From positions 1-64,000 of the forward strand of contig MARA01000015.1 of NCBI GenBank assembly GCA_001792895.1: DNA of 64,000 nucleotides, given 5' to 3'. Below are positions 1 to 60,330 of the stretch, piece by piece. The position numbers and the translations under genes are program-made. This DNA is from Lentinus brumalis (Eukaryota > Basidiomycota > Agaricomycetes > Polyporales > Polyporaceae). The notes beneath the pieces were generated by a model. It saw only the letters and a program-made list of their open reading frames with translations. It was not told where the DNA came from and ran no database searches. Numbering within the stretch: position 1 is the stretch's first letter; the number at the start of each line of letters is the position of its first letter.

Positions 1-126
1 ACCTAACCCTAACCCTAACCCTAACCCTAACCCTAACCCTAACCCTAACCCTAACCCTAACCCTAACCCTAACCCTAACCCTAACCCTAACCCTAACCCT
101 AACCCTAACCCTAACCCTAACCCTAA
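1..126. repeat. Telomeric repeat array (CCCTAA)n
   Basis: About 21 uninterrupted copies of CCCTAA begin at the first base and stop at position 126, where the sequence changes to ggtacaagg. Read outward on the minus strand this is TTAGGG, the usual telomere repeat of many filamentous fungi. It marks the window start as a physical chromosome end. Confidence 0.97.
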
Positions 127-13485: not shown

Positions 13486-13668
13486 GTCCCATACCATTCC
13501 TGCTTACTATGTTTTCCCTCCCTTCTGGGATTGTACCATTTTGTACGAGTCTTTAGAAGGTTCTTCGATAAGCACCTTGTATACCGACTCTCAGTCCCAG
13601 TCTGCGTTCGCGTCCCAGCCTGATAATTTCGCCAGCCCCCGAGGCTCATTCAGCGTCGTCTGGTATAC

Positions 13669-13880
13669 CTGTAATGGAGCACATTATGCCCGTAGCGAGG
13701 TGCTTCGTGTTCGTGAACTCGCTCAAGCTGCGTGTAGTGACCTGGCGGACGCGACTCGCGACTCAAGCGAGGAGCGGGTGCGCAAGAAGTGCGAGCGAGG
13801 TACTATCCGGTGCAGCGGAGAACGTAGCGTCGGTGGTTGTGGGTGTGAGCGGCAGGAGGGTCAGCGAATGCAGAGGTCAT
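13669..13880 (-). pseudogene. FunK1-core first-exon remnant (copy F)
   Basis: The minus strand from the ATG at 13880 aligns by eye with exon 1 of the intact FunK1 core gene at 41427. Shared segments include GCTGACCC...GCTGC, GAGTCGCGTCCGCCAGGTCACTACACGCAGC, the encoded pattern SLSEFTNTKHLA, and an ATTACAG junction followed by a GT donor. Internal stops and length changes break the frame. No second exon with HGDIN follows, so only the first exon survives. It is divergent from the family X remnant starting at 14051, with about 170 bp between. Confidence 0.62.
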
Positions 13881-19923: not shown

Positions 19924-20943
19924 CTAGTAGAACCCGTACCGCCGCATCCGCAGCCTGCTGTGGTTCTCCCACCTGTACGGCCCCGGACGCGGGTGGCGCC
20001 ACGCTGCGGCCGAGTAGGGCACGTCGAAGTCGACGAGCGCGCCCTCCGTGTGGCCTTGCCAGTGTCCTTCACCTTCTCCTTCTCCTTCTCCTTCGTCCTC
20101 GCCCTCGCCCTCGCTTTCGCACTCGCCCTCGCCTTCGCACTCGCCCTCGCCGGCTCGGCCGTGTCTGCTACTGGACGCACGCCTCTCGGGCTTGGAGTCG
20201 GGCTCGGACGCGGGACCTTCAGGCTGGGACTGGGACGCAGACTGAGAGTCGGGAGCGCCTCCGGAGGACGACTCGGACGCACGAGCACAGCGGAACTCGG
20301 ACTCGGAAGCACAAGGGGACTCGGCACTTGGAGCGGGCCCGGAAGCGGGCCAGTCGAGGATGAGGATGGTGTTCGGGTTGATGTCGCCGTGCAGTACGCC
20401 TGCGCGTTCGTGCAGCTGCTGGTGCGCTGTTCGGGGGTGCGCGATACGTGTGGGTTAGCATACATACGGAGGATCGGGGGAGCGGGACGGATCGGGTATA
20501 GGAGCAAATTCGGAATAAGGGAGAGCGGGAGACATTGCTCGTGAGAGACGGGAAAGGGAGGGAGGAGAGACGAGAACGGGATGGGTGAGAAACGAGAAAG
20601 GCACGAACTCACCTTGCACAGCGCCGTAGACGACGGAAATGAGCTCGTAGCTCGACTTGATCTCGCTCAAGCTGCGCGGGGAGACGTGGCGGACGCGTGT
20701 GCGGGGCCGACTCGGAGCATGGGCTGGCTCTGCGTCCTCGAGGTTTGTCTGCTCGTCGTCCGTGGTCGTACTCCCGGACTCCGATGCAGGTTGGCTGTTC
20801 ACGGGTGCCACCGGTACTGTGCGGTCGTCCGCGGGCCCGGGAAGGTCGACTTGCATCTGCGCGTCGTCGCTGGTTGTGCTGGCCTCGACTCCAAAATTGA
20901 GCACTGGTAGGTTTGACCCGGACTCGGACGTGGGCTTCGACAT
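19924..20943 (-). CDS. FunK1-like kinase-core protein with acidic insert (copy A)
   Basis: Two exons, 20943-20613 and 20426-19924, with a 186-bp phase-1 intron (GTGAGT, a branch-like GCTAAC, CGAACAG), give 277 aa. The N-terminus is a low-complexity Ser/Asp/Pro region. RVRHVSPRSLSEIKSSYELI leads into the exon junction, and exon 2 begins AHQQLHERAGVLHGDINPNT. These match the alpha-E helix and catalytic loop of fungal FunK1 kinases (family consensus near HRDIS.NNI), with HRD changed to HGD and Asp and Asn kept. ALVDFDVPYS replaces the DFG region with DFD. About 100 residues rich in Ser, Glu and Gly lie between the two motifs; in the paralogs at 41.4 and 54.4 kb this gap is about 5-16 residues. 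There is no N-lobe, lysine or C-lobe. It is likely a non-catalytic core protein. Confidence 0.68.
20060..20160. repeat. Hexanucleotide-type minisatellite inside FunK1 copy A
   Basis: Runs of CTTCTC, CTCGCC and TCGCAC repeat over about 100 bp. On the minus strand they encode alternating Glu, Gly and Cys/Ser. All units are multiples of three, so the frame is preserved. They account for part of the acidic insert between the catalytic loop and the DFD motif. Confidence 0.8.
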
Positions 20944-29110: not shown

Positions 29111-29334
29111 AGGACCCCGGCAAAAGCGCCCGGAGCTCATATGCCAGGATCACCGAAAATGGGCCCCGAGGGCCCCGAAAGTTGCATGCCAATCACCGAA
29201 AATGGCCCCGGAGAAGTGCGATGTCACATCCCCGAAAGTCCCTGGAGAGGTCGTGCTGATATGTCGGGATCACCGAAATCCGGCCGGGTGGGGTCCTTCC
29301 CGGGATGAGCACCGGGGTCCACCGACTCCCGAGC

Positions 29335-38600: not shown

Positions 38601-40874
38601 GCACGCTGGAAAGCGGGGCATGCCACAGTCCAGGGCAAACGTCACGTTGTTCAGATGATCGTAGGGGGTATCACGCAATATCTGACGGCGGTTCAACGTA
38701 TGCCTGAAGCCGTCCTGCACAGACTTACCAAAATCATTAGAGGGTACTTGTGGGACGACAGAGCGAATACGCCTGTGGGTATGCAGCACGTATGCCTCCC
38801 AATAGGCAAGGGCGGACTGGGCATGGTCGACCTTGAGTCTAGAAACGAAGCGATCGATGTCATGTGGCTAAAGATGTACATGGATCTCAGTAACGATCGC
38901 CCGCTCTGGGCATATCTTGCGGACGACCTACTTGCTACGAATGTTACCAAGGACTGTAGACCCAAACTTCCGGCTCTACGAATGAATACGTTCCTACAAC
39001 GCTGGAAACCTAAGGTCTATGATATCCCGCCCGAACTGAAAGGCATGATGGACGTTAGCCGCAAATATGGCGTGAGATTAGAGGGACTCGCCTTCTCTAG
39101 GAGTATCCTGAACGCCATGCCAATGTGGGATCACGCCCGAGCGGATCGGATCCGGCTAGGGAGACTGTCGGTGCCGTCGAAGCTCCTCTCGTGCATTCAG
39201 CAGAACCACGGAGCAAGATCAGTGGGTGACTTCGCAGACCTGGCACGTATCCTCGAAGGAACAGCTCACCGGCCGAAGGCATCGTGTACGTGCGGCGCGT
39301 GTGCACGCCTCAAATCCGAAAGTTCCTGCGAGAACCCTCATCTCTGCGGCACCAGGGCGAAAGAAATGCTAAATACGCTCCCGGCCAAATGGGACCCGAG
39401 AGCTAGTCAACCGGAGGATTTTGAAGAGCGCGATATGGGAAACCTACGGCGTGAATGCCAAGACGAGACGGTCGCGCACTTCGACCGCCGAGTCACAATT
39501 CATGGGAATCTGGGCCACGCCATCCGAATCTTCACGGGCCCGGAACCGGCCTCCGACGAGGCGCCACTGATGGAGCTGGACGAGGACGGATCCAGGATGA
39601 CCATTGCTACAGACGGGTCATGTCTGAACAACGGCGAGAGGTGTGCGAGAGCGGGCGCCGGGGTATTTGTTGAGACGAATCAGAACCTCTGCATGAGCCT
39701 CCGCCTTCCAGACTGGATGGACCAATCCAATCAAACGGGTGAAATTGTCGCGGCGCTCATCGGGGCGTCCACGGCCAGTAACCGCACGAGGGTTGTTCAA
39801 GAAACTGATTCGAAGACAACGATGGACTCTGTTACGAAGTGGCGTCAGAGGCATGAAGATACAGGTTATATTATGCAGAAGAACGCTAATCTCACCCGCG
39901 CCACGATCGCAAAGCTGAGGATGAGAAGAGCGCATACGAGTTTCAAATGGATCAAGGCCCACAACGGTCACCCGCGGAATGAGGCGGCAGACGCATTGGC
40001 AGGAGTCGCAGCAGCAAAACCTCACGGCGACCAGATATCCCTCACGTTCCCTGCAGCTCTCAAGCTCACAGGAGCTAAGCTCCAATCGATGACTCAAAGT
40101 CTAGCGTACCGCGCGATTCGGAGTCGAAGAGAGTCCGCAGTCGAACCTAGACCTATATCGATCGCAAATATGAATATGATATCAGGCGGGATAGAGCGGT
40201 CTTTCGGGACTCAGCTACACGACGAAACGATATGGAAATCACTCCGAGGAAGGCATGTCTCCAGAGAAGCATCCCAATATATGTGGATGGCAATCCATGA
40301 CGGTTATATGGTGGGTACGCACTGGCTCAGGACGAATATGTCGCCGGAAATGCAGGCGAGAGCGATCTGTACAGTATGCGGTGTGAGAGAATCCATGTCA
40401 CATATAGTCCTACAATGCGAAGCGAATGGTCAGCAAAGGATATGGTATCTCCTCAAGAAGCTCTGGCTCCTGACAGGGGCGATCTGGCACGAACCTTCCT
40501 GGGGAACGATTTTTGGCGCGGCATGCGCAATCTTCAAGGCTGACGATGGAACCAGGAAACCGGCTATTGAGCAGTTATGGTGTATACTCGCTACGGAGGC
40601 GGTACATCTAATCTGGAAATTACGGTGTGAGCGTGTTATACAGAGAGAAGGAAGAGACTTCACCGAAAACGAGATAACGAATCGCTTCTACTCGACAATT
40701 GACTCCAGGCTGAACCTTGACAGAAGGACGGCGGCAAGAGCCAGAGGGAAGAGATCAATTCGGCCGCAAGAAGTGGATCGAATATGGAGGCCAATTCTGA
40801 ATGATAAGGATAATCTTCCACTTAAATGGGTAGTCGACAGCGGGGTTTTAGTGGGTATCGTGCGCGGAGGGTGA
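35677..40874 (+). CDS. LINE ORF2: endonuclease, reverse transcriptase and RNase H, with one frameshift
   Basis: The first frame (35677-36774) encodes a basic N-terminus and an APE-type endonuclease with IASLNINGYG, LLLQETHL, VCVYAPTS, AGDFNNVEDAIDRL and SRLDRIYV. Near 36700 the homologous reading passes to another frame (GTFDGAREW...GISTDHALVLVQL, the conserved DH motif), which then stays open to 40874. One missing base at CCCCGGCACC would explain it. The RT domain shows APGLDGIPFELW, VNYRPITLLNTDYKLLSKIL, QAGFVPGRRI, IVALDQEKAYDRV, RGVRQGDPLSCLLFDLAIEP and the catalytic FADD (about 38268). RNase H follows with ATDGSCLNNGE, GEIVAALIG, ETDSKTTMD and IKAHNGHPRNEAAD. A C-terminal CX2C...HIVLQC zinc-like motif lies near 40375-40420. 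All catalytic residues expected for RT and RNase H appear present. Confidence 0.88.
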
Positions 40875-41108: not shown

Positions 41109-41127
41109 AAAAAAAAAAAAAAAAAAA
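41109..41127. repeat. Poly-A tail of the LINE
   Basis: A run of 19 A immediately precedes the right target-site duplication. It marks the 3' end of the element and fixes its orientation as plus. Confidence 0.92.
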
Positions 41128-41426
41128 CCAGCTTGAGCCGATGCTCGTAAATCAGACGGCCGGTCGTCTTACACAAGCGTAATGGCATCCGGCCGGCTCG
41201 GCGGCGGGAAACCGGCCGCTAAGCGCCCGAAATGTTATGTGCCGGCGAGCACCGAAAACCCAGCGGCCGGAGAGACCTTACGTGCCAATAACCGAAATTC
41301 ATCCTCCGCAAGACCACCGAAACTGGCCCCGGCCGGCATATGACCTCTGGGCGCTTTTGCCGGGGTCCTGTCTGTGGCTGCCCTGGTTGGCGTCTGTTGG
41401 CGTGTCTGCTCTCGACGACGTCTGCG

Positions 41427-41868
41427 ATGGCCGACCCTCTCGCTGCCTCTCCTCACGCGTCTTCCGCTGCGCCCGATACTGCCTCGCCCGTCTTGCCTGC
41501 GCAACCCGCGAGCCGCGTCCGCGAGGTCACCACACGCAGCCTCAGCCAGTTCACCGACACCAAGCACCTCGTCACCGTCATGATGGACGCAATCACAGGT
41601 GTGCCCTTCTCTCTCTTTCCCTCCTTTCTGCTCCTGAGCGCGCGCAGCCCACAAGAGCCTGTACGAGCTCGGAGGCGTCTTGCACGGCGACATCAACAAC
41701 AACACCATCATCATCCTTGACTTCCCCGGCGGCGACACAAGGGGCGCTCTCGTTGACTTCGACCTTCCCTACTCTATGCCGGCCACCCGTAAGATCGGCG
41801 ACCCCGACCCCGTCGGCCCACCCCCGCAGCGTAACCGGCCATACTACTGGCGTGCCCCGGGTGTTTGA
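41427..41868 (+). CDS. FunK1-like kinase-core protein, minimal form (copy B)
   Basis: Two exons, 41427-41598 and 41648-41868, with a 49-bp phase-1 intron (GTGTGC to GCGCAG), give 130 aa. After a short Ala/Pro-rich N-terminus comes RVREVTTRSLSQFTDTKHLV, then MMDAIT across the exon junction and AHKSLYELGGVLHGDINNNT, followed closely by ALVDFDLPYS and a Pro-rich C-terminus ending WRAPGV. Residues 30-105 thus track the FunK1 kinase from the helix before the catalytic loop to the DFG position. HRD has become HGD and DFG has become DFD. No other kinase subdomain is present. This is the shortest and cleanest member. The ATG lies 50 bp from the right end of the nested transposon, so its promoter is now split or replaced. 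Confidence 0.72.
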
Positions 41869-42182
41869 GGTGCGCCTGAGATCGATCGCCATCTCCTTGC
41901 AGGTCTGACTTTCGAATCGCATACGCTCTCAGTCATGTTCTTGTTGTCCTCCATGCTGTGATGCTTCGTGCATATGCTTTCGTCCTCGTGTTGTGGAATG
42001 TACGATAGAAATCTAACCACTTTGTACAATATGCTGTCAATGCTCGCACAGATCAAGACCACTCATCGACTTTGCTCTCTCACCATCACCCGCCTCGTCG
42101 CGCAAGCTACCCCACCCGCAGCCGCAACGCTGCCCGCAGAAACATCTCACTCACGCAATCTCGAATCTCGACGCTTTAGCTG

Positions 42183-42560
42183 GTGGATGAGACCGGGCAC
42201 GCTGAGCAGAATAATCCCGGACACTCGCAACCACCCTGTGGTCATGCTCGCCCGTGCCGCGCCTCCCTGAATCGACCCGAAATCCAGCAACGAGCTCGTC
42301 CATGTCATGTACCTCGCCGTCCAAGGTTACGGCGAGTTGACGATGAGTTCGCATCCCGTTGCATCGCTTAACGTTCAACCCCACCTTCTATCCGTGCTCC
42401 AGAATACTAACAAGTAGACGTACTGCACGGCGACATCGACGTATGTCCGGATTCGCCGAGTCTGAGGCGAGTCCCCCCAGCGGCGAAGACAAGGCCGGGG
42501 GCCACCGATCGTCGACTTCGCTGCGCCCTCGCCTTGGCAGCCTGGCGCGATCCGTGTCTG
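42183..42560 (+). pseudogene. Decayed FunK1-core gene (copy C)
   Basis: SNELVHVMYLAVQ (about 42285-42323), followed by a G and a gap, corresponds to SHELVYVVAGAVR before the intron in copy D. VLHGDID (about 42419-42440) matches the catalytic loop start. Stops and frame changes separate them and no DFD motif is readable in frame. It lies tandem to copy B on the same strand. Confidence 0.55.
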
Positions 42561-42635
42561 GAGCCGTGCGGGTGTGGCAGGACCACGTAGCAATATATGC
42601 ATGTGGCGGTGCTATAGGACATTCAGGCTCGTTGG

Positions 42636-44211
42636 CACCCCAGGCAGGGGATCAGACCACCTCTCAGGTGGATTCCTTGTGCATGGGAAATCCTCCTGAG
42701 AGGACCCCTCCCCGCACGGACTTCCCGCACCCAGATCCAAATATGGCCTGGGCGCTATTGCCAATTCTGGGCTGTCCGCTGCCTTCGGGATGGGCGCCAT
42801 TGTCTCCGCGCCGCCGCCCGCCCTCCACCTCCGCTGCCTCCCTGCCCCGCGCGTTGTGGTGTCTCATTGTCATGTATATTACGCACACTCTGTAGACCAT
42901 TAGCAAGCGATTGAGTGATGCCAGAAGCCGATTTACTTGCCTGATAGCGTGAAATCATGGCCACGATCCAGAAGGTGACTTCAAACAACTTTCAGAATCA
43001 TTGGGTAAGTAACCTGGAAACTCGGATGTCCGTACCGACCGCTGCTCAGACGTCCGCTACGGACGTCTGGTCGCATGTCCGCTACGGACGTCTGGTCGCA
43101 TGTCCGCTACGGACGTCTGGTCGCACGTCCGCTTGCCTGTTCCTGGAGTTCACGGCGCTACACAGGTCCGGGAAGCATCCCCGATTTGGATTCTTGTCGG
43201 GGTTCGCGCCGCCTCGTCCGGGTGCGGATACCTGCTGTCAGCAGCCAATCAAAGCTCGGATATCAATCCTACTGAATGTTTTAGATTTCTGACATACCCT
43301 TCAGGCCCTCGGGAGCTGTAGCTGTGTGCCCATAAATATTTGGCAGGGCTATGGAGACCAGTTGTAGAGATACAGGTTGTTTTTGACAGTCTTCTTTGGG
43401 GTCTTTTGACATTGTGTACCTGTTCTGCCAGGAATGCATTATGAGTTCATATAGTGGAGTATACTGAAGTGCATACTCAGCGCATACCTTGTATATGTGC
43501 ACCTTCATTGTCCTCCTGCATGCAGAAACCAAGTCAGCATGAGACCTAGACTGCTTGGGACTTCACTGAAGCAACAACAGAGGTCATACCAATGAGAACA
43601 AGGTAGATATATGTTCTGGCTTTTTAGTAGAGCGCTTGGGCTGAATAGACGTGGTTCGCATTTTTACTTTCTGGTGTGTAGTACACCACCCTTTGTTGCT
43701 AGTATCATTCTGGCATTTCTATGAGCTCATGGTCGAAATTATAGGTCATTCAGACCAGAACTTAGCCCAAAAAACATACCAGTGTACAGGAGAATTTTGA
43801 GCGTCAACCCAAGAGGGTCCGGACGGATTTGGATGCCCGAGGTCCCTCCGGAGGTCCGGTCTGATGTCCCTACAGTCGTCCGGAGGTATGGTCAGTATGG
43901 ACGTCCGTGCAGACATTCCTGCACATGTACGAGCGTAGCCAAAAGCATTAAAAGTGAGTTGTAATTGACTGAACAACTTCAAGACGAGCTACAGAGCATA
44001 AAACACAAATGCGGCATAGGACACAGCTTCAGACGCCCGCGCGGTCGTAGGATGAGTGGTCGAAAAAGGCAAGCCACGAGGCTCCGGCACCCGGAGCCGA
44101 GGAATCTATTTTTAGGCACAAGCAGACGTCCGCAGAGGAGGGGTCCTCTCAGACCTATTTCCCATCTACAAAGTATCGGCCTGAGAGGCCCAGTCCTCCC
44201 CTGCCCTAGGT
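42636..44211. mobile_element. Inverted-repeat DNA transposon with 9-bp target duplication
   Basis: The left end (ACCCCAGGCAGGGGATCAG, then CCTCTCAGG, ATGGGAAAT and CTGAGAGGACCCCTCC) is matched in the same order by the reverse complement of the right end over about 80 bp. GCTCGTTGG flanks both sides (42627-42635 and 44212-44220). The ~1.58-kb interior is AT-richer and has no transposase. GGACGTCCG-like motifs cluster at 43025-43130 and 43800-43930. This organisation resembles the element at 22317 and suggests a Mutator-like, non-autonomous element; the exact termini are uncertain by about one base. Confidence 0.7.
43055..43130. repeat. 25-bp tandem repeat, 3 copies
   Basis: The unit GTCCGCTACGGACGTCTGG plus TCGCAT is repeated three times almost perfectly within the transposon. 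Each unit contains the palindrome-like CGGACGTC motif. Confidence 0.85.
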
Positions 44212-44220
44212 GCTCGTTGG

Positions 44221-44713
44221 TTGCGTCCGTGCAACGTGAACTCCTACGGTCGTCGTTCCGCAGAGACGACTGCGTCCTTGGATCATGTGCATGAAGCAGG
44301 ACGCATGTAGCGAGTACTCATGGTTCCGTATCCAGGATATAGACTCTTGCGTCGAAGTTCGTTGTCTCGTCGACACGGGCTGGACTCAATGACTCCTCCA
44401 TAATATCGATATCTACATCCAAATGTACGATGTCGGTGTGCGACGGCGTATACTAGCAGCCGATGCTGGTCACTACTCTACATGCCGACCTCCAGTACAC
44501 TCAAACCGCGTCCTCGCAGAGACGACAAACGTAACCGCCAAAGCTGACATAGCTCCGTGAAATAGAGCGTGACGTGGTCCATAGAGTGAGCGACATACTT
44601 ATGGGCTCCTGTACACGCCGCAGAGCTCTCTGACTCTGCTGTTTCTACGGCGGATGGTACTTAATGGTAAGTGACGCGCTCCTGGTTTGGAGTTCAGCAA
44701 CTCACCGATCGAA
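44221..44713. other. Short intergenic region
   Basis: No gene or repeat is supported between the transposon's right flank and the stop codon of the F-box gene on the minus strand. Confidence 0.4.
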
Positions 44714-46367
44714 TCACGTCTTCCATAGCTGTCGAACGAACGCCGAGTCATCCGCTTCGCCTGGTCGCCCTTTCGAAGCGCGAAGATTGCTCAATATGTG
44801 GAAGACACGGTCACAGAGCGCGGAGGAGTCAGGTGATCCTTTGCCGCACCCGTAAGGGTGCTCGTTAGTAAAGTCCAATCGGGGGAAAATCCGGTCGACG
44901 AGGGCTGCAAGCTTGGAAAGCTCGGCACCAGACAAGTTAGCCTTGTCCATGCTATTCCGGAAGGAGATGCGGCCGACGAGAGACTGCTCCATGCGCGGGA
45001 TGAAGTCCGGATCAGGGAGGTGCTGCACGTTCAGCTTCGGGAAGCTGAGATACTCCAACTGGGGACAGAGCGACGACAGGTGGAGGAGCGCAGGTAGAGT
45101 GATCGCCGGTGCGTCGTCGTGAGACCCGTTGGTGTAGACGGCCAAGCTGCGCAGCCTGGGCCATGCCGCAGCAAGGGAGGTGATGTCCTCGTCCGAGGGA
45201 GCGAACGGACAGTTCAACTCCTCCATGTTGCTGAGGAAAATCATGGGCCGAAGGAGAATGCCAAACGCCACGGATACAGCGTGTTTGTATGATGTTTGCA
45301 GCACCAACGAGGAGACCCCAGCAGCCACGCAACGTAACGTGTCCAGGAACTCCTCCAGCAATCGCAGATCCACCCTGGTGACGATGGGATTCTCCTGGTC
45401 AAGGAGCTCAAATCTACATCTGTGCAGACGTCGCGACTCTGAGACCATCTGTAGGGACTCATGTACGTAAGGAAGAGGACCGCGCAGATAGAGGATCTCC
45501 AGCGCGGTGAAGCCCCTTCGGCGACACGGTATGTGTGAGTGGGTGGTCGCCCCGAAAAAGACGTAGCAGCTGAGCTTCCGCAGACTCTTCAGGGTTGATA
45601 GTACCTGCATAGTGGGCTGATCTATACCATCTGTCCTAGTGTCGAGTATGCACAGGTCGGTCAAGGGTGCGATTGCTTGCAGATGGCGCGTCACCTGAGG
45701 AAGCGCACCGTGGATGTCAGGCCTCAGGGAGACCGTGGAAGACAGCGAGGCCAGGACGGTATTGACAAGGCCGCGTGAGTGGGAGAATCTCCTCGATGAG
45801 ATGATGAGGTCGAGTTCAAGGACGCGTATAGATGGCGAAAGGACGAGGAGACACAACGAGGGGACTCCGGGGCGGACCGTCACGACAAGCTCAAGCCGCC
45901 GCAGGAGTGGGAACAGCGGCTCTCCGTTGAGTCTCTCCGCGACAGCGAGCCATGTGGCACGCCGTGTTGGATCGAGTTCAAGCTCGTCGACCGCCCGCAA
46001 CTCGCGCACTAGTCGGGCATATTTCCGGAGTCTGCGCCAAGCGGACTCATGAATGACATGATCGACATCCGAATCACGCAGGTGCTAGTGCAGTGCTATC
46101 AGTGTCGATAGTTTGTGCATACGTCGGTCGACTTACTGGGTACGTCAAGATGTCCAGGACTGGATCAACGGTGTCGAGCGATCGCCAGAGGTAGCCCAAT
46201 GCGCATTCAGATAGCGCTGAATTGACCGTGGCACAAGCAGCGAGCGCAGATCGCAGCTCCGCCGCTCTATTTCTGTCGTCTGGATCCCTACGATCTTGCC
46301 GATTGAGAGCAAAGTGTCGGAAAATCTCGAGGAGAACGTCCTCGTGAGAGAGCGCGCGGGAGGTCAT
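44714..46367 (-). CDS. F-box/LRR-like protein (gene B)
   Basis: Two exons, 46367-46137 and 46084-44714, with a 52-bp phase-0 intron (GTAAGT to CACTAG), give 533 aa. Exon 1 is the F-box-like domain: MTSRALSHEDVLLEIFRHFA, then CATVNSALSECALGYLWRSLD. Exon 2 begins HLRDSDVDHVIHESAWRRLR and carries LRR-like segments (LRRLELVVTV, SIRVLELDLI, LKSLRKLSCYVFF, WPRLRSLAVYTN and CPQLEYLSFPKLNVQHLPD). It is closely related to genes A (21793), C (50158) and D (57713), and both intron position and exon 2 opening are conserved. Frames are open throughout, so it is likely functional. Such proteins are expected to act as substrate adaptors of SCF ubiquitin ligases; the target is unknown. Confidence 0.82.
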
Positions 46368-46373
46368 GCCAAT

Positions 46374-46776
46374 CTACTCATCGTGCGAGTCGTCATTCAG
46401 CCTGGTGTTTTGGGACGCTTTTACTCGCTTACTTTCCGGTGAGTTGACCTGACCGACAAGCTTGGCAAGAGAGCGTGACGGTTTGAGTGAAAGAGTGAAG
46501 TACTTCTCCGGGCGGTGCAGTGCACTGCTTGAGGCGGTTGGATTTACGGCCCGAGCGTCCGGTTCTCTGGCAGTGTAGTGCTCATCTGGTGGGTCGGACT
46601 CGTCGATAATCCACGTCACCAGCGGGAGAGATGGGGATGACAGCAGAAGAGGACTCTGTTATCGCGGGATCCATGTCGTCGAGAGCAGACACGCGAAGAG
46701 AGGCGAGCTTCAGCCCGACTTGAGCCACAAACGCGTCCGTAAGATTCGCACGCCCCATGCTGCCTCCTCCCGTCAC
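46374..46776 (-). pseudogene. Possible FunK1-core remnant facing family X (copy G)
   Basis: The minus strand from about 46758 (ATGGGGCGTGCGAATCTTAC) shares with the start regions of copies B and F the run GCGT.TGTGGCT and the exact GCGTGTCTGCTCTCGACGAC that stands just before the ATG of copy B. An ATG follows at the same place (MDPAITESSSAVIPISPAG, then RRVRPTR). Beyond this the frame stops, and a separate frame ends at 46374, only seven bases before the start of F-box gene B. No HGDIN exon is visible. Homology of the flanking region is convincing; that of the coding part is tentative. Confidence 0.42.
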
Positions 46777-46860
46777 TCCTCGCTCTCCGCTGCCTCCACC
46801 TGCTTAAGTGCTTTTATGAACCCTGTGTGATCGGTCGACAATATTTCGGATGGCGATTGT

Positions 46861-47590
46861 CTAGGTCGCGTCGCTCCAGTCGCTCGTCCAGCCCACCTTC
46901 TGGCAACTGAGCTCAAGATCGACTTCCTCCGCCTCTCGGACGATACGCAGTTGGTCACCGCGACATAGACCTCTGGACACATTGTCAAGGATATGGAGAC
47001 CTCGCAGGAACCCCGCACTCGGGTGCCGTCTCGCCCTTGGTCGGGACACGTTCCAGCCTGCACCCGTACGTGCCTCCTCCGTCATCTTCATCCGGCGGTA
47101 TTGATTTCGTTACTCAAAGTTATGCAGGACACGGTCTCTACGCCTGGTGTGTCCATGAACCTCGAACGCGTACAAGGATGCACTCCTCAACTCGGCCCCT
47201 GACGATACTTGGGAGAGCCGTCGACAAGTCTACCGTGCGATCCTCAACTTGGAGGCGGGGAGGACCCTGTCGGCGGACGAACTGCCCCTGTCACTGAAAG
47301 CGATAGCCTTCAAGTGCTCACTATTGGCGGTCCGTACACGTCAGATTGTCATTAAGACCCGTCCATTGAGACCCGTCGGAGATCTCTTTGTCGGCCGTCT
47401 TCTCCAGAGAACTACGTGTATTGCTGCCCGTAGCCGCCTGTGCCATGCAAACGGCTGGGGCTCCGGGAGTACGCAGAGCTTATTCATGATGGAGACGATC
47501 GTTGTTCTTGGAGGCCCGCAGGACAAGGTGCGCGACTCTACGTGCACTTCACAGTCGACTGATGCTGACGAGCAGAAATCAACTATTTGA
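46861..47590 (+). pseudogene. Family X remnant (copy 3)
   Basis: LVQPTF and ELKIDFLRLSDDTQLVTAT (46880-46970) correspond to LVQPAF and ELKIDVLRIFDDAQPLTAT of copy 1, again in shifted frames with stops. A donor-like GTACGTGCCTCC follows at 47064. A later open stretch, 47167-47590, reads KDALLNSAPDDTWESRRQVY and LSADELPLSLKAIAFKCSLL and may be a real downstream exon. Its product is unknown. Confidence 0.5.
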
Positions 47591-47693
47591 TGCATGTCCA
47601 TAGTGAGCTTTCTGGCTACACATGTACACATTGGAACGACTTTGCAAGTCCTATTGTGCCTCCCGCTGCTCTACTACGCCGTCTTCCAGCCTA

Positions 47694-49217
47694 TCAACAC
47701 GAAAGAGTAAGCCTACCGTCCATCTGCGCCCACCACCGCACCCTCGCCGCGTTCCACGCATTCCGCCGCTCGTCCAGACACCTCTCGCACCATCGCTTCC
47801 GCAGCTCCGCCGACCGGTTGTCCAGCAATTGCAGGGCAGCAAACGGATCCTCCGCTCCCTTCTCCACGAACTGGCACCACGTCAAATACCACTCTCGCTC
47901 CCGCTCCCGACCCGCCGTCTTGACGCACCACTCGGCCTTGCCTCTCCCTTCCAAACGACTCTTGCATGCCGTGTCGTTTGCTGGCCCGTGCCTCTCCTCC
48001 CCGTCCTCAGGCACGTACTCGACCGGACACGGTGGTGTGCAAACCAGCGTCCGCCACTCGCGCTGCAGCCACTCCCGCGCCACGTACAGCTTCAGCACCT
48101 CCGCCTCGCGCAGCACGTCGACAACAAGCTGTCCGGTGCACTGCAGCATCGCTCCCATGTTCGCCCAGAACCGCGGGTCCGCCAGGATCCGGTACGCGGC
48201 GCACTTGATGAGCCCGGGAATGCCGTGCTCGCGCGCGAACACGATGACCCCGATCGCTGTCTTGTGGGGATCCGTTTCGCCCGGCTGTGGCGCTCGAGCT
48301 GGAGGCGGCACGTCCTGCTGGTAGCGAGAACAGAGCTCGTTGGAGGCGGACGGGCCGACGTCGGTGTGCTCGCCGAGCAGCCGCGCGGTGCGCATGAGCG
48401 AGATTAGCTCCGTGTCTGGCAGCTTCGTCATGAGCTGAGGACTGTGTACTATCGCGTCAGTCTCGACATCCAGTCTACGTCCGTACGGAGGGACATACCG
48501 ATCGTCGTAGTACAGAATCAGCAAGAACCACTCAAAGTGCAGCGCGCCGACCCCGAGGGCAGCCAAGTTCTGGCCGAGCACGGGACATCCCTCCACGACC
48601 TCCGTCCCTCGCGCACCGCGCCGGGGTAGGGAACGTCCAGGAGGGCCCGGCGGAGACGTGTGCACTTGATCCCGAGCCGCGCGCGTTTGATCTTGAAGAG
48701 CGTCCGCTCGACACGCAGCACGATGTCTCCGTCGGCCTGCCAGTGCCTCTCTGATCGGGGGTGCACCGGCTGCTGGGCCGTGGTGTGTCTCTGCACGCCG
48801 TGGTCGCGTTCTTCTGAGCCCCAGATATGGAGCTGGGGCATCGGGCGGCCATGTTTCTGCTTCTGCGTCTGCCCCGTCTCTGCTTTGTGGGGAGTCTTGG
48901 TGTGGGATGCACCGTCGAGGGCGCGGGTGCTGCTGGTCCGGGCGGTCTGCTCATCGCGCTCGTCAGCAACCTGAGCCCTCTTCACTCGCTAAACGCACCT
49001 CATCACGAACGACTTCCCGCTCCACGTCCATCCCATCGTCGTCATCGTGGTCGAGCTCATCGAGCTCATTCTCCTCTTCCTCATACTTCATCGGGTCGGG
49101 CTCCGGGAGAGTGGCGATGCTCGGCATATCAGAGAATCTGAGTGGCGTGTGCATGTGCTGATGCGCCGGGCCGCCGTCGAGGGTAGGACAATGATAGGAG
49201 GAGCCTGAGGCGACCAT
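47694..49217 (-). pseudogene. BTB/POZ gene copy B, frameshifted
   Basis: The start MVASGSSYHCPTLDGG at 49217 and the acidic stretch EEEENELDELDHDDDDGMD align with BTB copy A. Near 48975 the reading moves to another frame (AQVADERDEQTARTSSTRAL). The BTB core ADGDIVLRVERTLFKIKRAR continues in it, and near 48610 one G is missing from the GGGACGGAGG context, so the rest (GTEVVEGCPVLGQNL, then FEWFLLILY) is in a third frame. The intron (GTATGTCC to ACACAG) and exon 2 to the stop at 47694 are well preserved. Two indels in an otherwise close paralog mean a recent pseudogene or, less likely, two sequence errors. Confidence 0.72.
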
Positions 49218-49304
49218 CGTCGAGTGAGTCGGTCGAGAGATCTGCGTGTGTGTGGGCGTGTCAGTGCTGACGCGGGTTGCGAAGTGCTTATTTTGAGGAG
49301 GGCT

Positions 49305-49375
49305 CACTGTGTATATAGCCCGGCCGAAGCATTGTCCGCGCTGCTGAGGACGGCCAATGCGCCGCGCGGCGTGGT
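49305..49375 (-). promoter_or_regulatory. Conserved BTB-gene promoter, copy B
   Basis: On the minus strand GCGCATTGGCCGTCCTC (complement of CCAAT at 49354-49358) is followed by GCTTCGGCCGGGCTATATAC, about 100 bp before the ATG at 49217. It matches the block before BTB copy A. Confidence 0.5.
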
Positions 49376-50157
49376 CCTTGGTTTCTGCTGCGTGGTCTTG
49401 TCTTTCAAAATTTGGGCCCTCGCACAACAATGCAGCCGCAGGGAGGCGTGGAGCTCGAGGCAGAACCTATGAGACTCGAAGGCGAGCTTGATGGAACCAA
49501 CTCCGGTGTCAATGCGGGCGCGCCTATGTAGACACGAAGGACAATGCGTTGACGTTCTCCGTGATATCCAGAAGCTTGTACGTATCTGCCTACAATGTAT
49601 ATACTACCAGACGCTCTTCTCCGACATACATATCGCGAGGTCCTTGTTCTCCGACAGACAAGCCACTCGTCTCCGTTGGGCTTTGCGCAAGTGCTCGAAC
49701 CTGATCGACGCCACTCGCAAGCCCGATACGGTACACCCTTGCGTGACACCGTACACGACATGCAACGAGTAGCGACGACTCATGATGAGCGATATCACGG
49801 TGCTCAGTGGAGAGAAATTGGGAACGCAGTCAGCGGAGGAAGGCGTATACTGGTCGGCGTGCGACGACAGGGATCTGGCTCTGGAGCTCATGCGGAACGG
49901 GATGCACGTTACGTTCGTCGAAATAGGTCCAAGAGATAGGTACTAGAATCATGATGCTAAGTACAGAGGAACGGGAGTACGCGTGTAGACGACAATGCGA
50001 CGTTGATGATGTATAGTGCTGGACGACACTGAGGCTATATTGTGACACGTCAACTCCGAACGTCCTCAAACGAAGCTGCCATGACGAACGTACCATATCG
50101 ATCCTGCATGCGTAGACCTCGGAATCGCTGCACAGGGTGATGCCAACCTCCGAACAT
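49376..50157. other. Intergenic region
   Basis: The left part (49450-49750) resembles the region upstream of BTB copy A near 25400-25800. No gene is supported in the remainder. Confidence 0.4.
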
Positions 50158-51743
50158 TCAATCCGCCTCCGAACCACCGTGCCTTGACGCCCGGAGGGTT
50201 GTCAGTGGCTCGAGCACCTCAGGTGGCAGGCGGGACGTCCCCTGCGCGTCCGGCGCGATGACTAGATAGGGACACATTCGATCGATGAGACGTGGCAGTA
50301 TCCAGACGTCGGCGGGGGACATGTAGCCCTTGACTCGGACTTTGTCGAATTTCACACGTTGAACGCGCGACTACTCCATACGGGGGACAGAGGACGGATC
50401 CGGAAGGTCCCGGGCCCATGCATGCAGATGGCGGAACAGGATGGACTCTAAACGGGGACAGCGGAGAGCGAGGTCGAGGAGCGCGGCCACGGAGATGCCT
50501 GCGTCTGAGCGGCTGTATCCTCCTTCGTGGAGCTTCAGCACCCGGAGGTCGGGCCAGGCGGTGGCGAACGGAGAGATATCGCGGTCCGAGAGCGTCACTA
50601 GTAGCGAACTAGACTTGAACCGACAGATCAGTTCCTGCAAATCGTGGAGTGAGAGTACAGGCTCACGGAGTTCTGCAAGACCGAGAGACGTAGGTGTGTA
50701 GACCAAACAATCCAGGTGCAGCCACAACGAAATTATTCCGACAGCTGCGTGACGAAGGCTATCGAGGAATGTCGTAAGCCGTTGTACGTTGACGCTCATG
50801 AGGATGATGATCTTCAAGCGGCGTAGATGCGAGGATGCCACCATCTGCAGGGCCCCCTCTATATCAGGGAGAGACCCGCCGGTCATGCAGAAGGATTCCA
50901 GTGCGGCGAAGCCCCCTCGACAGGACACATGCGAGTCCATGTCTTCAATCCGGACGTCGCCGCTCAGCTCTCGTAGATTGGCCAGCGCAGAGAGCATTTT
51001 CATTGCGAAATAGCTCATAGGAAGCTGCTCATAGGAAGTCAGCACATCGAGTTCGCGCAGTGCTCCCTACCGTCCGATATGACGCGTCACTTCGGGTGAA
51101 GATGTCGCCGGTCCATGGGGCTGCGGAACACAGGGAGACCAAGAGATCGTTGTCAAACGTAGCAGTGTTGAAACGTTTGGACCATTCTGGATGCGTGGTC
51201 TCCAGGACCAACGTGCGTATGGATGGCGAGAAGGCGAGGAGATATGCAGGGGGTTTTGAGACATTAATCGCGACTTCGAGGCGCTGGAGGGAGGGGAACC
51301 ACGGCTCTCCGTTCAGCTTTGCTGCGAGAGCGAGCCATATAGAGTGGAATCGCGAGTAGCAGTTGGTCTTCGTGTGCGCTTCAACTCGCGCACGAGTACA
51401 GTGTATCTCTGGAGCCTGCACTACGCGGATTCGTCGATACTGTCGGAGCCTTCGTGCTATTGCATTCCTATTAGACCTTCCTCAGTAAAACCGAAGGTCG
51501 ACTCACATTACTATTATGCGCTAGGATCTTCATGACCGGCGTTATGTTGTCGAGCACTCGCCAAAGGAAAGGCAGAGCGCATTCGGACATGATGCGGTTG
51601 GCGGTAGCGCAAGCTGCGATCGCGCACCGCAGCTCTCTTCTCTGGTACAATTCGTATGCATCACAGTTCTGGGGCTTCCAGTCGGGGGCAAGGTGGAAGA
51701 AGATCTCATATAGGTCTTCACAAACTACGGCGCGCGAGGCCAT
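50158..51743 (-). pseudogene. F-box/LRR-like gene C, multiple lesions
   Basis: Exon 1 from 51743 (MASRAVVCEDLYEIFFHLAP...CALPFLWRVLD) and the GTGAGT donor match gene D. In exon 2 a TAG stands where gene D has TGG (about 51420), and the frame then slips before LAAKLNGEPWFPSLQRLEV. It slips again near 51045, before LTSYEQLPMSYFAMKMLSAL. A TAG replaces the CAG of the MEQSRVQ motif near 50374. Sequence similarity to gene D continues to the same C-terminus (PPEVLEPLTTLRASRHGGSE). The gene is clearly dead but recent. Confidence 0.82.
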
Positions 51744-52142
51744 CTGAGAGCGAAGCGGGCGAGTGAGTTCAAGCGATCACCAGTCTGCAGAACATACCTG
51801 CCCGTTGTATCGATGAACTTATCAACTTTGGTCTCGCCTAAAGTCACCGTATGAGCGGGAGAGGCAAGGCAGGAGGAGGCGTACTAGTATTTACGTAACA
51901 ATTGTGTCTTGTTGCCGGACCACAAACTCATATTGATGTTCCTTATGCCAGTTTACTTACCGTGCACTCCGGCCTACTCCGGCTTTCTCTCCCTTCTCCT
52001 CCAGCTTTGTTTCTGACTCTACACTGACTTCACCCTTCTTACGGTTCTTGCTCTTGTGCCGAGCGTTCGACGGAAACTTGGCACCTCTGGGCAGCATATC
52101 CAGCTTCGGACTTATAGATCTTCTCTCTTCATCGTCACCGCC
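51744..52142. promoter_or_regulatory. Divergent promoter region between F-box gene C and the kinase-like fragment
   Basis: The two starts (51743 minus, 52143 plus) are 400 bp apart. The same head-to-head arrangement is found at 57250-57712 with a 463-bp gap. No individual binding site can be named with confidence. Confidence 0.4.
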
Positions 52143-52700
52143 ATGCCTACCGTCGAGCTCACCTATTGCAACGAACATATCAAGAACACCAGAGGCGTGT
52201 ATACTGTGCATGCAGACGAGGACGGCGCCGTCGGCAATGTCCTGGAGAAGATATGGGATAAGCATCCAGTCCAGCTTCGTGGGCGATGGCCAATGTAGGA
52301 TAGAGTCGGACTCGCGGGGCTTGGTTCCCTTGGTACGTCCACACAGACTCGAGCTGCTGCAGCATTGACTTCAGTAGAGAATTTCGGTACCTCTCTCGGA
52401 TGAAGATGACCTGGCAGCGATGTCTGCATGAACTCAGGACGGCGTCGACGCGAACAGCGCTCCATTTCTGTGTCCGCCATGCAGCAGCGTACAAGCCTTG
52501 TCGGCTATGAGCTGCGCGTGGACCTCACGGACAGCGGCTCTCATGCGAACATAGTCGGAGCAGGTGAGTACTCGTTTCGGGCAGTCAAGCTGTTTGCGGG
52601 AAAATTGCGGTTCGACGACGTGCATGCGAAAATGATAACAGCGTACGCTGGACGCCTCAGCCGCGTGCTCGTCCACCCTTTACGTTGCCGTATGAGGCTT
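52143..52700 (+). pseudogene. 5' fragment of a kinase-like gene
   Basis: The ATG at 52143 opens MPTVELTYCNEHI, then AVGNVLEKIWDKHPVQL, closely matching the gene starting at 57249 on the minus strand. After RWP a few extra bases shift the frame and a TAG follows. The continuation (LVRPHRLELLQ, then VGYELRVDLTDSG near 52500) is out of frame, and the kinase-like C-terminal part is absent. It is a truncated copy in inverted orientation relative to the 55.2-57.2 kb gene. Confidence 0.65.
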
Positions 52701-53252
52701 GTGAGCCCAAATGGCATCCACGAGGGGGGACCGAGTGTCCGAAAGATAGACCAGCCATCTCGCCTCTGAGTCTTCGTCACGGCACGACGAGTCAAAGCGT
52801 CGACGAACTCCCTCGCGGCCGACTTACATCATCTCCATGCTCGCGTCGATCGGCCAGCTCAGTACGCTTAAACTTCCGGATGATCCAGCAATCAATCTCG
52901 CCGCGCCGCTCTGCACGGGTTGACTTTGACTAGGCGGGCGAGGATGGGTGTGGCTGAATGTGAGGGACGATATCGATTAGGCTGAAGGTGCTGGACCTGG
53001 AGGACCGATACATATGCAGCACGATCTGGAGATGCTGAGTATCTGGCGCGATTCGACATGGCAAATCACGTCAATTCTACTTCGTTCCGTATGTCAGTGA
53101 TATGGCTGCCTGCGTACGTCAAGCCTAGCTACGTATGTGCATACCCTTCTGCCTCTTCATGATGTTGCACCACGTCGGCCTGCTCGCCCTTCAATCCAAC
53201 CCCTCGCTCTGACTCCAAGCTCTAAAGAACTTGAACACTCGCCTCTCATGCT
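52701..53252. other. Intergenic region
   Basis: No gene, repeat or RNA structure was recognised. Confidence 0.4.
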
Positions 53253-53969
53253 TCACCACCGCGCCCCCGGACCCATAACCTTCTCCCTCCCCTCCGTGCT
53301 CGTCGCCGCCCGAAACTCCTCCGTCTCAAACGCATCCAACGACTCCCACTCGTGTATCGCGAGGTACTTGCCCGGCGCCGCGCGCGGCATCGCACCCGTG
53401 TCCGACACGACGCTCGTGCCCTGCACGCTCAGCACGCTGTGCGCGACGAACCGCCGTGTGCGCACCCACCCGGGCACGCGCGCGAGCATCGGGACGTGCT
53501 CGCCGTCGTACCACGCATTCAGCGCGGCCTCCGCAGATGGATCGTCCCGGATCGTCAGCTCGACGACGCTCACGTACGCCCCGTGCTTCGACTCTGGCAC
53601 CCTAGGAGCGGCGACGGGCGGGAGCGGGGTGTAGATGCGGCGGTCGAGGAACTCGAGGCGCGCGAGGACGGAGAGCTCGTGCGGGCTGCGGGAGGTCGCG
53701 AGCGCGACGTAGGGCTGCTCGAGGACCGCGCTCGGGGAGGAGAGCGTGTAGAGGGCGAGGTGGTGCGGGGTCTTGGCGTCCGCGGCGGTCCAGCGGGTGC
53801 AGGCGAGGAAGAGCGGGCCGGCGGGGCCGCGGAGGTTCATGCGGAGGGGGATGTGCTCGTTGTTGTACCAGTCTTCGAACTCGTCTTCGGGGATGGCGGT
53901 GCCGCGTTCGGTGTAGACGAAGAGCAGGCCGGTGGTGGGCGAGGGCCCGGAGACGGTGTTTGTGGACAT
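53253..53969 (-). CDS. EthD-like dimeric alpha-beta barrel protein
   Basis: A single uninterrupted frame of 238 aa starts at the ATG at 53969. Two related halves each carry the typical helix entry of EthD-like proteins: EDWYNNEHIPLRM (residues ~29-41) and NAWYDGEHVPMLARVPGW (~152-169). Each is preceded by a beta strand (LLFVYTERG, YVSVVELTI) and followed by another (YLAIHEW near residue 210). This fits a tandem ferredoxin-like fold of the dimeric alpha-beta barrel superfamily. Many such fungal proteins have no proven reaction and some relate to small-molecule degradation. No signal peptide is present. It is GC-rich and intact. It is one of the few single-copy genes here and lies between the arms of an inverted duplication. 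Confidence 0.75.
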   Translation of the reverse strand: MSTNTVSGPSPTTGLLFVYTERGTAIPEDEFEDWYNNEHIPLRMNLRGPAGPLFLACTRWTAADAKTPHHLALYTLSSPSAVLEQPYVALATSRSPHELSVLARLEFLDRRIYTPLPPVAAPRVPESKHGAYVSVVELTIRDDPSAEAALNAWYDGEHVPMLARVPGWVRTRRFVAHSVLSVQGTSVVSDTGAMPRAAPGKYLAIHEWESLDAFETEEFRAATSTEGREKVMGPGARW

Positions 53970-54375
53970 CGTGGGCAGACGCAGTTGTCAGAGGTAAGCC
54001 TCGGTCAGCGTGAGGATGGGACTAATTGCCTGAACATGTCCTCTTATATGGAGGAGCAGGAACCCGGACAGGATTGGGCTACGGAAGGTCAGCTGTTCTA
54101 TTCTTCTCGCCGCGCTCTCACCAGGATCTGGACAGCGCTCGGGAAGTCCTCGTCCAACGCATCGTCTCGGTCATATGTTCACCTTCTAGTCTCGACATCT
54201 CATCGATTCACGCGTATATTCCCTATCGTACATCACAAGCCTGCCATCTTCCGCGCTCGGCCCCTGCGACAAACCGACCTTCGCGCAAAACGAGTCAATA
54301 TGGAGACGATGCAACTGTACCTGCAGATCAACGCACCTCTCTCCCGGTATATGTTGCGAGCTCCTAGCCTGCCGT

Positions 54376-54907
54376 TCAGCTAAACTTGTACGGCCACGGA
54401 TGCACGAGCTGTCGGATCCCCTCGAGCGAATACGGCACGTCAAAGTCAACCAGCGCGCCCTCCGTACGCGCCTTGCCTTGCGCCGCGCCATCCGAGTCGC
54501 CCTCGCTCGCGGGCCAGTCGAGGATAAGGATCGTGTTCGGGTTGATGTCCCCGTGCAGCACGCCCGCCTCCTTGTACAGGCGTTCGTGGGCTGTACGCGT
54601 AGTAGTTAGCATGTATGTAAAGGAGCGGGCATGGGCATGCGGAGTGGTGAGGCGTACCTCGGACAGCTCCAGCTACGACATACACGAGCTCGTGCGAGTT
54701 CGTGAACTGGTCGAGGGTGCGAGGGGACACTCGACGGACGCGCTGGAACGGTTTCGCACCCGGTGCTTTGGTTTCCTGTGTGCGGGTTGACGTTCTATCC
54801 GAGTCCTTTGCTGGAGGATTTGGGTCGACTTGCATCACGTCTGGGTCTGGAGCTAGTGAGGAGTCGTCGCTGGCGGTGACGGTCTGCGAGCTATTGGCGG
54901 TGGCCAT
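54376..54907 (-). CDS. FunK1-like kinase-core protein (copy D)
   Basis: Two exons, 54907-54658 and 54590-54376, with a 67-bp phase-1 intron (GTACGC, GCTAAC branch, GTACAG), give 154 aa. The N-terminal ~60 residues are Ser/Asp/Thr-rich. RVRRVSPRTLDQFTNSHELV leads to the junction, and exon 2 reads AHERLYKEAGVLHGDINPNT, then ILILDWPASEGDSDG, EGALVDFDVPYS and a short tail ending YKFS. The intron position and phase are identical to copies A and B. As in those, the catalytic-loop Asp and Asn are kept, HRD is HGD and DFG is DFD, and N-lobe and C-lobe are missing. It could bind a partner kinase or act as a decoy; that is inference. Confidence 0.72.
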
Positions 54908-59929: not shown

Positions 59930-60330
59930 GAGCTACGGCTTACGGTACGGGAGAAGAGACGTACCGATGCATCCGCAAATTGCTGGCGCTCTCCGAGTCC
60001 CGCTAGCACGTCAGGGACGTGGATGGCGCCAAGCAGCCGTCAAGTATCTAGGGCACGTCGAGGTCGACGCGTGCACCTTCCGTGAAGCCCTTCAACAGAT
60101 CCCTTGCGTCCGACGGACTGACCTCGAACTCGACGGACCGGTAAGCACTCGGCTATGACTCAGTCTGGATAATGGTGCGGGATGTCGTTTGGGTTGCGCA
60201 AGCGGAATCTGGAGCCCTCGATGCTCACTCACAGACATAGATAATATGTAAATGTCGTTGTTGTCGTGCTCGGGAGGTAGACTAACATCTACGCCTCGTC
60301 TATCTCCGTCGTTGCGGGGGTATCCTGTGG
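59930..60330 (-). pseudogene. Decayed FunK1-core gene (copy E)
   Basis: On the minus strand, EGARVDLDVP is followed by a stop, then PSTSLTC, and SNLRMHRYVS at about 59960 corresponds to EGALVDFDVPYS and SRLRMRRYGFY of copy A. EHDNNDIYIL (about 60245-60275) may correspond to the HGDINPNTILIL catalytic loop. Stops and indels prevent a continuous frame. Confidence 0.5.

What the first reader, a model, noticed from the sequence alone, without database searches (positions are those of the whole stretch)
41427..54907. A family of tiny genes that keep only the catalytic-loop core of FunK1 kinases
Seen: three intact two-exon genes (19924-20943, 41427-41868 and 54376-54907) share the intron position and phase, the order SLxxF...ELV...A|H..LY..GVLHGDIN..TI..LD...GALVDFD.PYS, and nothing else of a kinase. 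Family knowledge: these segments correspond to the alpha-E helix, catalytic loop and DFG region of fungal FunK1 kinases. HRD became HGD and DFG became DFD in all three, so the changes are fixed rather than random decay. With no N-lobe and no lysine they cannot bind ATP as a kinase does. A stable shrunken core that has multiplied suggests a new role, such as a decoy, a regulator of full FunK1 kinases or a subtelomeric selfish gene.
Basis: partly seen in the sequence, partly recalled or inferred. Interest (0 to 1): 0.82.

Follow-up and report, generated by a model that had tools for sequence, protein, structure and literature searches.

The report
Dead mini-kinase gene family in polypores
Near one chromosome end of a wood-decay mushroom sit three small genes that kept only the middle slice of a fungal kinase, with key catalytic residues replaced; the same slice is conserved in related mushrooms, so it is probably a working non-enzyme protein of unknown job rather than debris.

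Summary
The three two-exon genes are real: A 19924-20943(-), B 41427-41868(+), C 54376-54907(-). Each matches Pfam PF17667 (FunK1) above its cut-off, but only within profile positions 264-346 of 387; no other significant FunK1 piece lies in the window. Their phase-1 intron is the ordinary FunK1 intron (37 of 38 modelled FunK1 loops): truncated FunK1 genes, not retrocopies. They belong to one clade of small proteins from 11 Polyporaceae genera. HRD reads HGD and the Mg-binding Asn is Thr/Ser/Ala in 46 of 46 database relatives, while 38 of 38 FunK1 loops keep Asn. 'DFG to DFD' is not a change: FunK1s here have D[FW][DE]. Ten relatives lost even that motif yet keep HGD. The core changes more slowly than N-tail and loop in 6 of 7 orthologue pairs. 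Genome searches found intact copies only in this subtelomere, with three relics beside them. Best reading: a conserved, catalytically dead, FunK1-derived binding protein, perhaps a microProtein-like regulator. Expression and partners are untested.

The parts
20613..20943 (-). Gene A, exon 1 (variable N-tail with MQVD, then RVRHVSPRSLSEIKSSYELISVVYGAVQ)
   Evidence: PF17667 over residues 87-136; closest relatives P0002, P0003, P0005
20427..20612 (-). Gene A, phase-1 intron, GTGAGT...ACAG
   Evidence: same site and phase in 37 of 38 modelled FunK1 loops
19924..20426 (-). Gene A, exon 2 (HGDINPNTILILDWP, long acidic EGEG loop, TEGALVDFDVPYS, C-tail)
41427..41598 (+). Gene B, exon 1
   Evidence: relative P0004 at 98%
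41599..41647 (+). Gene B, phase-1 intron, GTGTGC...GCGCAG
41648..41868 (+). Gene B, exon 2 (HGDINNNTI catalytic-loop remnant at 41683-41709, DFD segment, RKIGDPDPVGPPP tail)
54658..54907 (-). Gene C, exon 1 (N-tail with MQVD, then RVRRVSPRTLDQFTNSHELVYVVAGAV)
   Evidence: relative P0001 at 95%
54591..54657 (-). Gene C, phase-1 intron, GTACGC...ACAG
54376..54590 (-). Gene C, exon 2 (HGDINPNTILILDWP...TEGALVDFDVPYS, short C-tail)
13667..13831 (-). Relic 1: B-type exon 1 only, stop in the N-tail, no exon 2 found nearby
   Evidence: 66% aa identity, E 6.9e-8; 71% over 31 aa; blastn 79.8% over 94 bases, E 2.5e-18
42280..42610 (+). Relic 2: A-type copy in broken pieces (42280-42327, 42406-42440, 42506-42610), just downstream of B
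   Evidence: window-wide blastn E 1.2e-5 and 5e-4 for two pieces; looser search of the short region alone E 1.8e-11, 4.9e-5, 1e-3. The first piece rests alone
59960..60089 (-). Relic 3: A-type exon-2 end, frame broken
   Evidence: window-wide blastn E 6.5e-9, tblastn with P0005 E 0.003
1..126 (.). Telomere repeat (CCCTAA)n: genes and relics lie about 13-60 kb from a chromosome end

Best explanation
A conserved family of small, catalytically dead FunK1 derivatives. Shown by sequence: a FunK1-type gene was cut down to the end of one exon, the old phase-1 intron and the next exon; nothing matching the profile before position about 264 or after about 346 remains; the loop lost its Arg and Mg-binding Asn; and the product descends as one clade through Polyporaceae, its core changing more slowly than N-tail and loop. 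In this genome three intact and three dead copies lie at one subtelomere, which reads as local duplication and decay. Inferred: the protein works by binding, not catalysis. Because it copies the FunK1 segment around the active site, the most likely role is a microProtein-like competitor that occupies a partner, substrate or dimer surface of full FunK1 kinases, with the variable tails tuning or localising it.
For: PF17667 partial matches above cut-off. No significant FunK1 piece in the window outside the three genes. Shared intron site and phase with 37 of 38 modelled FunK1 loops. One clade: 38 rows, support 99/93; 36 rows, 100/99, after leaving out eight long or doubtful rows. Loop signature: Gly in 46 of 46, Asn in 0 of 46, against Asn in 38 of 38 FunK1 loops. 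Core (68 sites) against N-tail plus loop, one grouping for all pairs (counts): A-P0003 1/68 v 29/126, A-P0002 3/68 v 32/148, A-P0005 12/68 v 46/90, B-P0008 9/68 v 20/30, C-P0001 0/68 v 7/70, C-P0006 17/68 v 35/55; Fisher p 0.013 or less in these six of seven. A C-tail holding PPP occurs in 21 of 46 relatives and in 0 of 38 FunK1 readings. NG86 dN/dS of 68 core codons: A-C 0.25, B-C 0.29. Model of B: the 22-residue helix is the firm part, and the highest structural alignments are kinase segments.
Confidence: 0.45

Rival explanations
1. Exapted binding or scaffold protein with no remaining link to FunK1 signalling: the helix and catalytic-loop slice is a stable fold reused with new tails.
For: Family-specific PPP C-tail (21 of 46 relatives, 0 of 38 FunK1 readings). 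Ten of 46 relatives read YWD/YWE/YWV where FunK1 has DxD or DxE, yet keep HGD; the eight of them in the tree form one clade (100/99). The FunK1 matches listed on this contig lie at 732 kb and beyond, not beside these genes (a capped list).
Against: The most conserved part is the former FunK1 active-site loop (H70, G71, D72, N76 of B invariant in 34 rows), which suits mimicry of a kinase surface.
Confidence: 0.35
2. Subtelomeric selfish or non-functional genes kept by duplication alone.
For: Subtelomeric; three decayed relics beside three intact copies; a LINE-like retroelement next to B.
Against: No intact copy listed elsewhere in 53.4 Mb. Polyporus arcularius has a close relative of each of A, B and C, and named relatives come from 11 Polyporaceae genera. 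Core slower than N-tail and loop in six of seven pairs.
Confidence: 0.08
3. Exons of larger, full FunK1 kinases whose other exons were missed.
For: Shared FunK1 intron.
Against: tblastn with 124 FunK1-like frames from 37 loci of the same genome: outside the three genes the best hits have E 0.013 (overhanging the end of C) and 0.024. Named relatives are annotated as proteins of 79-262 aa (P0050, 313 aa, apart); four of them (P0005, P0007, P0026, P0027) are marked partial.
Confidence: 0.03
4. A residual enzyme or nucleotide/metal-binding protein that uses the HGD Asp.
For: HGD Asp in 46 of 46. HGD also occurs in one FunK1 with Asn kept (L038). P0014 (Ganoderma) has sub-threshold Kdo and APH matches.
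Against: Profile positions before about 264 are missing, Asn is lost in 46 of 46 and DxD in 10 of 46.
Confidence: 0.06

Closest known systems
FunK1 fungal kinases (Pfam PF17667, Pkinase_fungal)
   Same: Homologous over profile positions about 264-346; same phase-1 intron; DxD in place of DFG; HxD loop
   Different: Rest of the profile missing; HRD to HGD; Mg-binding Asn to Thr/Ser/Ala; the Ser that FunK1 carries after HRDI (PMC3203195, legend passage; 37 of 38 here) is Asn in 43 of 46; variable tails, and a PPP C-tail in 21 of 46
Pseudokinases (BubR1, named in a passage of PMC3591445; MLKL is among the structural neighbours)
   Same: Kinase-derived, lacking catalytic residues
   Different: Those keep a two-lobed domain (recalled); these keep about 80 of 387 profile positions
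microProteins (plant miP1a/b; PMC8418433 seen as a listing with the start of its abstract)
   Same: Small derivative of a larger gene family that could act by competition (general concept recalled)
   Different: Competition with the parent family is not shown here
Gloeophyllales proteins P0050 (Heliocybe, HGDINPNT) and P0051 (Neolentinus, HGNIDINT)
   Same: PF17667 match only at the same slice (profile 279-339 and 262-342)
   Different: 313 and 319 aa with a long N-terminal part without a Pfam match; very long branch, membership doubtful

Membership tests
FunK1 kinase (PF17667) | Sequence similarity above Pfam's curated cut-off | tested here: met
   36.3, 51.6 and 42.7 bits against 24.1
FunK1 kinase (PF17667) | Complete domain along the profile | tested here: not met
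   Only positions within 264-346 of 387 matched; no other significant piece in the window
FunK1 kinase (PF17667) | HRD catalytic loop with Mg-binding Asn | tested here: not met
   Window genes read HGD and Thr; 46 of 46 relatives lack Arg and Asn; FunK1 38 of 38 Asn, 34 of 38 Arg
FunK1 kinase (PF17667) | Phase-1 intron before the catalytic loop | tested here: met
   37 of 38 modelled FunK1 loops share site and phase
FunK1 kinase (PF17667) | Phosphotransfer activity | not testable with these tools
   None; the sequence argues against it
microProtein | Small protein derived from a larger family, keeping part of its domain | tested here: met
microProtein | Binds the parent protein or its partner and modulates it | not testable with these tools
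   No interaction data
Mobile or selfish element | Dispersed copies in the genome | tested here: not met
   Intact copies listed only in this window. Relics as decayed as the three here could be missed elsewhere: the DNA searches did not list these either

The most novel reading that the evidence does not exclude
A Polyporaceae-wide lineage of kinase-derived microProteins: about 70 residues around a dead FunK1 active site, with newly gained tails, kept since before the Polyporaceae genera split, regulate the large and functionally unexplained FunK1 kinome by mimicry.
Probability: 0.3. Interest if true: 0.75.

Novelty: new variant of a known kind. Interest (0 to 1): 0.5.

Why it matters
FunK1 is an expanded fungal kinase family whose function was described as not established (PMC3591445 and PMC3203195) and among the least understood (PMC6001611; passages read of all three). 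A natural, conserved, inactive slice of it would point to the surface through which FunK1 proteins act and gives a small handle for genetics. It would also be a very small kinase remnant, about a fifth of the PF17667 profile, kept across a fungal family while losing residues needed for catalysis.

Tried and rejected
Rejected: DFG-to-DFD as a fixed change (normal FunK1 state). Rejected: retroposed origin (intron kept). Rejected: exons of a bigger kinase. Disfavoured: dispersed family.

Tried without result: YN00 dN/dS (failed); sequence search of solved structures (best E 0.19); Foldseek in the PDB (no E <= 0.001); first fold, of C (pLDDT 53); Rfam on the window (0 matches); third protein search, with P0050 (2 hits, itself and P0051). 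Literature on truncated FunK1 proteins: in the listings and passages seen, nothing describes this family. Not possible: species-level dN/dS and expression, as no coding DNA or reads of relatives were available.

Limits. The PF17667 genome search (107 of 235 candidates scored) did not list the three window genes themselves, so it cannot exclude further diverged small genes; the statement on copies rests. The protein searches scored only the 7991 and 7990 candidates sharing most words, so relatives outside Polyporaceae may be missed. In one search the next FunK1 intron could be modelled in 19 of 38 loops, none of them of the nearest group (C48: L027, L028, L046, L052). In one search the splice choice was guided by a profile of the small proteins. 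Rows dropped: the 46 relatives leave out P0018, P0019 and P0039 (unspliced frames) and P0050, P0051 (doubtful); of 48 fetched FunK1 loci (L001-L008, L017-L056), 37 gave the 38 loops used and 11 gave none matching the pattern; one loop (L055, phase 2) was left out of the trees. My first grouping for the Fisher tests put the loop with the tail for A but with the core for C; one search repeats them with one grouping.

Full report
What is there. The window is the start of contig C44 of a 53.4 Mb, 136-contig genome and opens with a telomere array, CCCTAA repeats at 2-126. Three genes with the same two-exon plan lie at 19924-20943(-) (A), 41427-41868(+) (B) and 54376-54907(-) (C). Splicing at GT-AG sites gives open proteins of 277, 130 and 154 aa. 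All match PF17667 above its cut-off, over profile 274-323, 276-346 and 264-343 of 387.

Nothing else of a kinase. 124 FunK1-like frames from 37 loci of the same genome (of 50 loci screened) were searched against the window with tblastn. The significant hits fall in the three genes; outside them the best have E 0.013 (overhanging the end of C) and 0.024.

Origin. In 38 FunK1 catalytic loops of this genome the script's best model has a phase-1 GT-AG intron at the position of A|H (A|M in some) in 37. The choice was guided by a profile of the small proteins, which helps the agreement, but many exon matches in the independent PF17667 search also end or start at profile position about 298, the same place. 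The small genes therefore kept a FunK1 intron. In 19 of 38 loops where the next FunK1 intron could be modelled, it starts 16-20 aa after DxD. C ends 20 aa after its DFD, A 32 and B 34, which fits a stop near or inside a lost intron (inference).

Relatives. A profile search found 20 proteins and a second round 45. The named ones come from 11 Polyporaceae genera (Polyporus, Lentinus, Cerioporus, Earliella, Daedaleopsis, Trametes, Lenzites, Cubamyces, Pilatotrama, Ganoderma, Dichomitus; family looked up for Pilatotrama, Ganoderma and Polyporus, the others recalled), except P0050 from Heliocybe, Gloeophyllales. Polyporus arcularius has a close relative of each of A, B and C, all reported with a contig length of 54,981 bases, so probably one cluster. 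Members with near-consecutive tags occur in Trametes pubescens and T. versicolor. Frames P0012, P0016, P0037, P0039, P0048 and P0049 show an insertion just before the AH/GH that follows the intron, as expected if they read through a shared intron.

Tree. With 37 FunK1 rows and 38 small proteins the latter form one side of a branch (99/93). After leaving out eight long or doubtful rows, the 36 small proteins remain together with 100/99; their join to the C48 FunK1 group has 87/78 and is flagged as a possible long-branch artefact. B groups with P0004 and P0008, apart from A and C, which share a seven-row clade (99/95); so the copies are older than the species split with P. arcularius. The alignment has few columns, and many forks are unresolved.

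Signature. Position 2 of HRD is Gly in 46 of 46 database relatives; the Mg-binding Asn is Thr 36, Ser 7, Ala 3. FunK1: Arg 34, Cys 3, Gly 1; Asn 38 of 38. The residue after HGDI is Asn in 43 of 46 and Ser in 3; in FunK1 Ser in 37 and Asn in 1. DxD: 35 relatives keep D.D, 10 read YWD, YWE or YWV, 1 was not found; FunK1 DWE 25, DWD 7, DFD 4, DFE 2. The window's three read HGDIN, Thr and DFD. So DFD is a FunK1 state, and the fixed changes are Gly and the lost Asn. The relatives were collected with profiles that already carry HGDIN, so a member with another loop could have been missed. P0050 also has HGDINPNT; P0051 reads HGNIDINT.

Constraint. With one grouping for all pairs, the 68 core sites changed less than N-tail plus loop in six of seven pairs: A-P0003 1/68 v 29/126, A-P0002 3/68 v 32/148, A-P0005 12/68 v 46/90, B-P0008 9/68 v 20/30, C-P0001 0/68 v 7/70, C-P0006 17/68 v 35/55 (Fisher p from 2.6e-7 to 0.013); B-P0004 is uninformative (1/68 v 0/32, p 1) (counts; gapped sites set aside). 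NG86 on 68 core codons gave dN/dS 0.25 (A-C), 0.29 (B-C) and 0.71 (A-B); the last is weak evidence. PPP in the last 50 residues is found in 21 of 46 relatives, and in none of 38 FunK1 readings over their last 60 letters; of the window genes only B has it.

Turnover. Genome-wide searches with C, B and a piece of P0034 listed intact copies only here; apart from relic 1, their other matches were weak hits to FunK1 genes. Three relics lie in the window: 13667-13831(-), about 42280-42610(+), 59960-60089(-). This looks like birth and death at one chromosome end. Equally decayed relics elsewhere could have been missed.

How it may work. A kinase mechanism is very unlikely on sequence grounds; binding is inferred. 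Mimicry of a FunK1 surface (microProtein-like) is my first choice, a re-used scaffold a close second. FunK1's own function was described as not established (PMC3591445, PMC3203195, PMC6001611, passages read; PMC8955403, one passage). PMC3203195 also says that FunK1 shares only about 35% of the ordinary kinase domain, mostly its C-lobe, so the loss of the N-lobe is stated here relative to the PF17667 profile. The listings and passages seen gave no description of this family; subscription journals are mostly missing from that library, so this does not prove absence.

Noticed in passing
window 36765-40874(+): LINE-like retroelement frame (reverse transcriptase plus RNase H), with an A-tract at 41109-41127, about 300 bases upstream of gene B.
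   Followed up: partly
window 1-126: Telomere repeat CCCTAA, 20.8 copies; the contig starts at a chromosome end.
   Followed up: yes
window 20065-20151: Gene A's acidic EGEG loop is encoded by hexanucleotide and 18-base tandem repeats and differs in length between species.
   Followed up: partly
N-tails of window A and C and of P0001-P0003, P0005, P0006, P0009, P0011, P0021, P0023, P0025, P0029: Short MxVD motif recurs in the otherwise variable N-tail (11 of 46 relatives, two of them using the start Met); possible linear motif.
   Followed up: partly
L038 (G000:C45:667800-670800): A FunK1 with HGD in place of HRD but with Asn kept.
   Followed up: no
P0029, P0033-P0035, P0042-P0044, P0046, P0048, P0049: Relatives with YW[D/E/V] in place of DxD, a further step of catalytic loss; the named ones are Trametes, Cubamyces and Pilatotrama.
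   Followed up: partly
P0050 and P0051: Gloeophyllales proteins with the same PF17667 slice behind a long N-terminal part without a Pfam match.
   Followed up: partly
window 22709-22877 and 23451-23543: CGCGTCA-rich minisatellites, unexplained.
   Followed up: no
window 17754-19613(+): Frame with HAM1-like N and C domains, next to gene A.
   Followed up: no
window 41335-41369 versus 29111-29145: 35-base stretch upstream of B matches the other strand at 94%; a further 30 bases match 46675-46704 at 90%.
   Followed up: no
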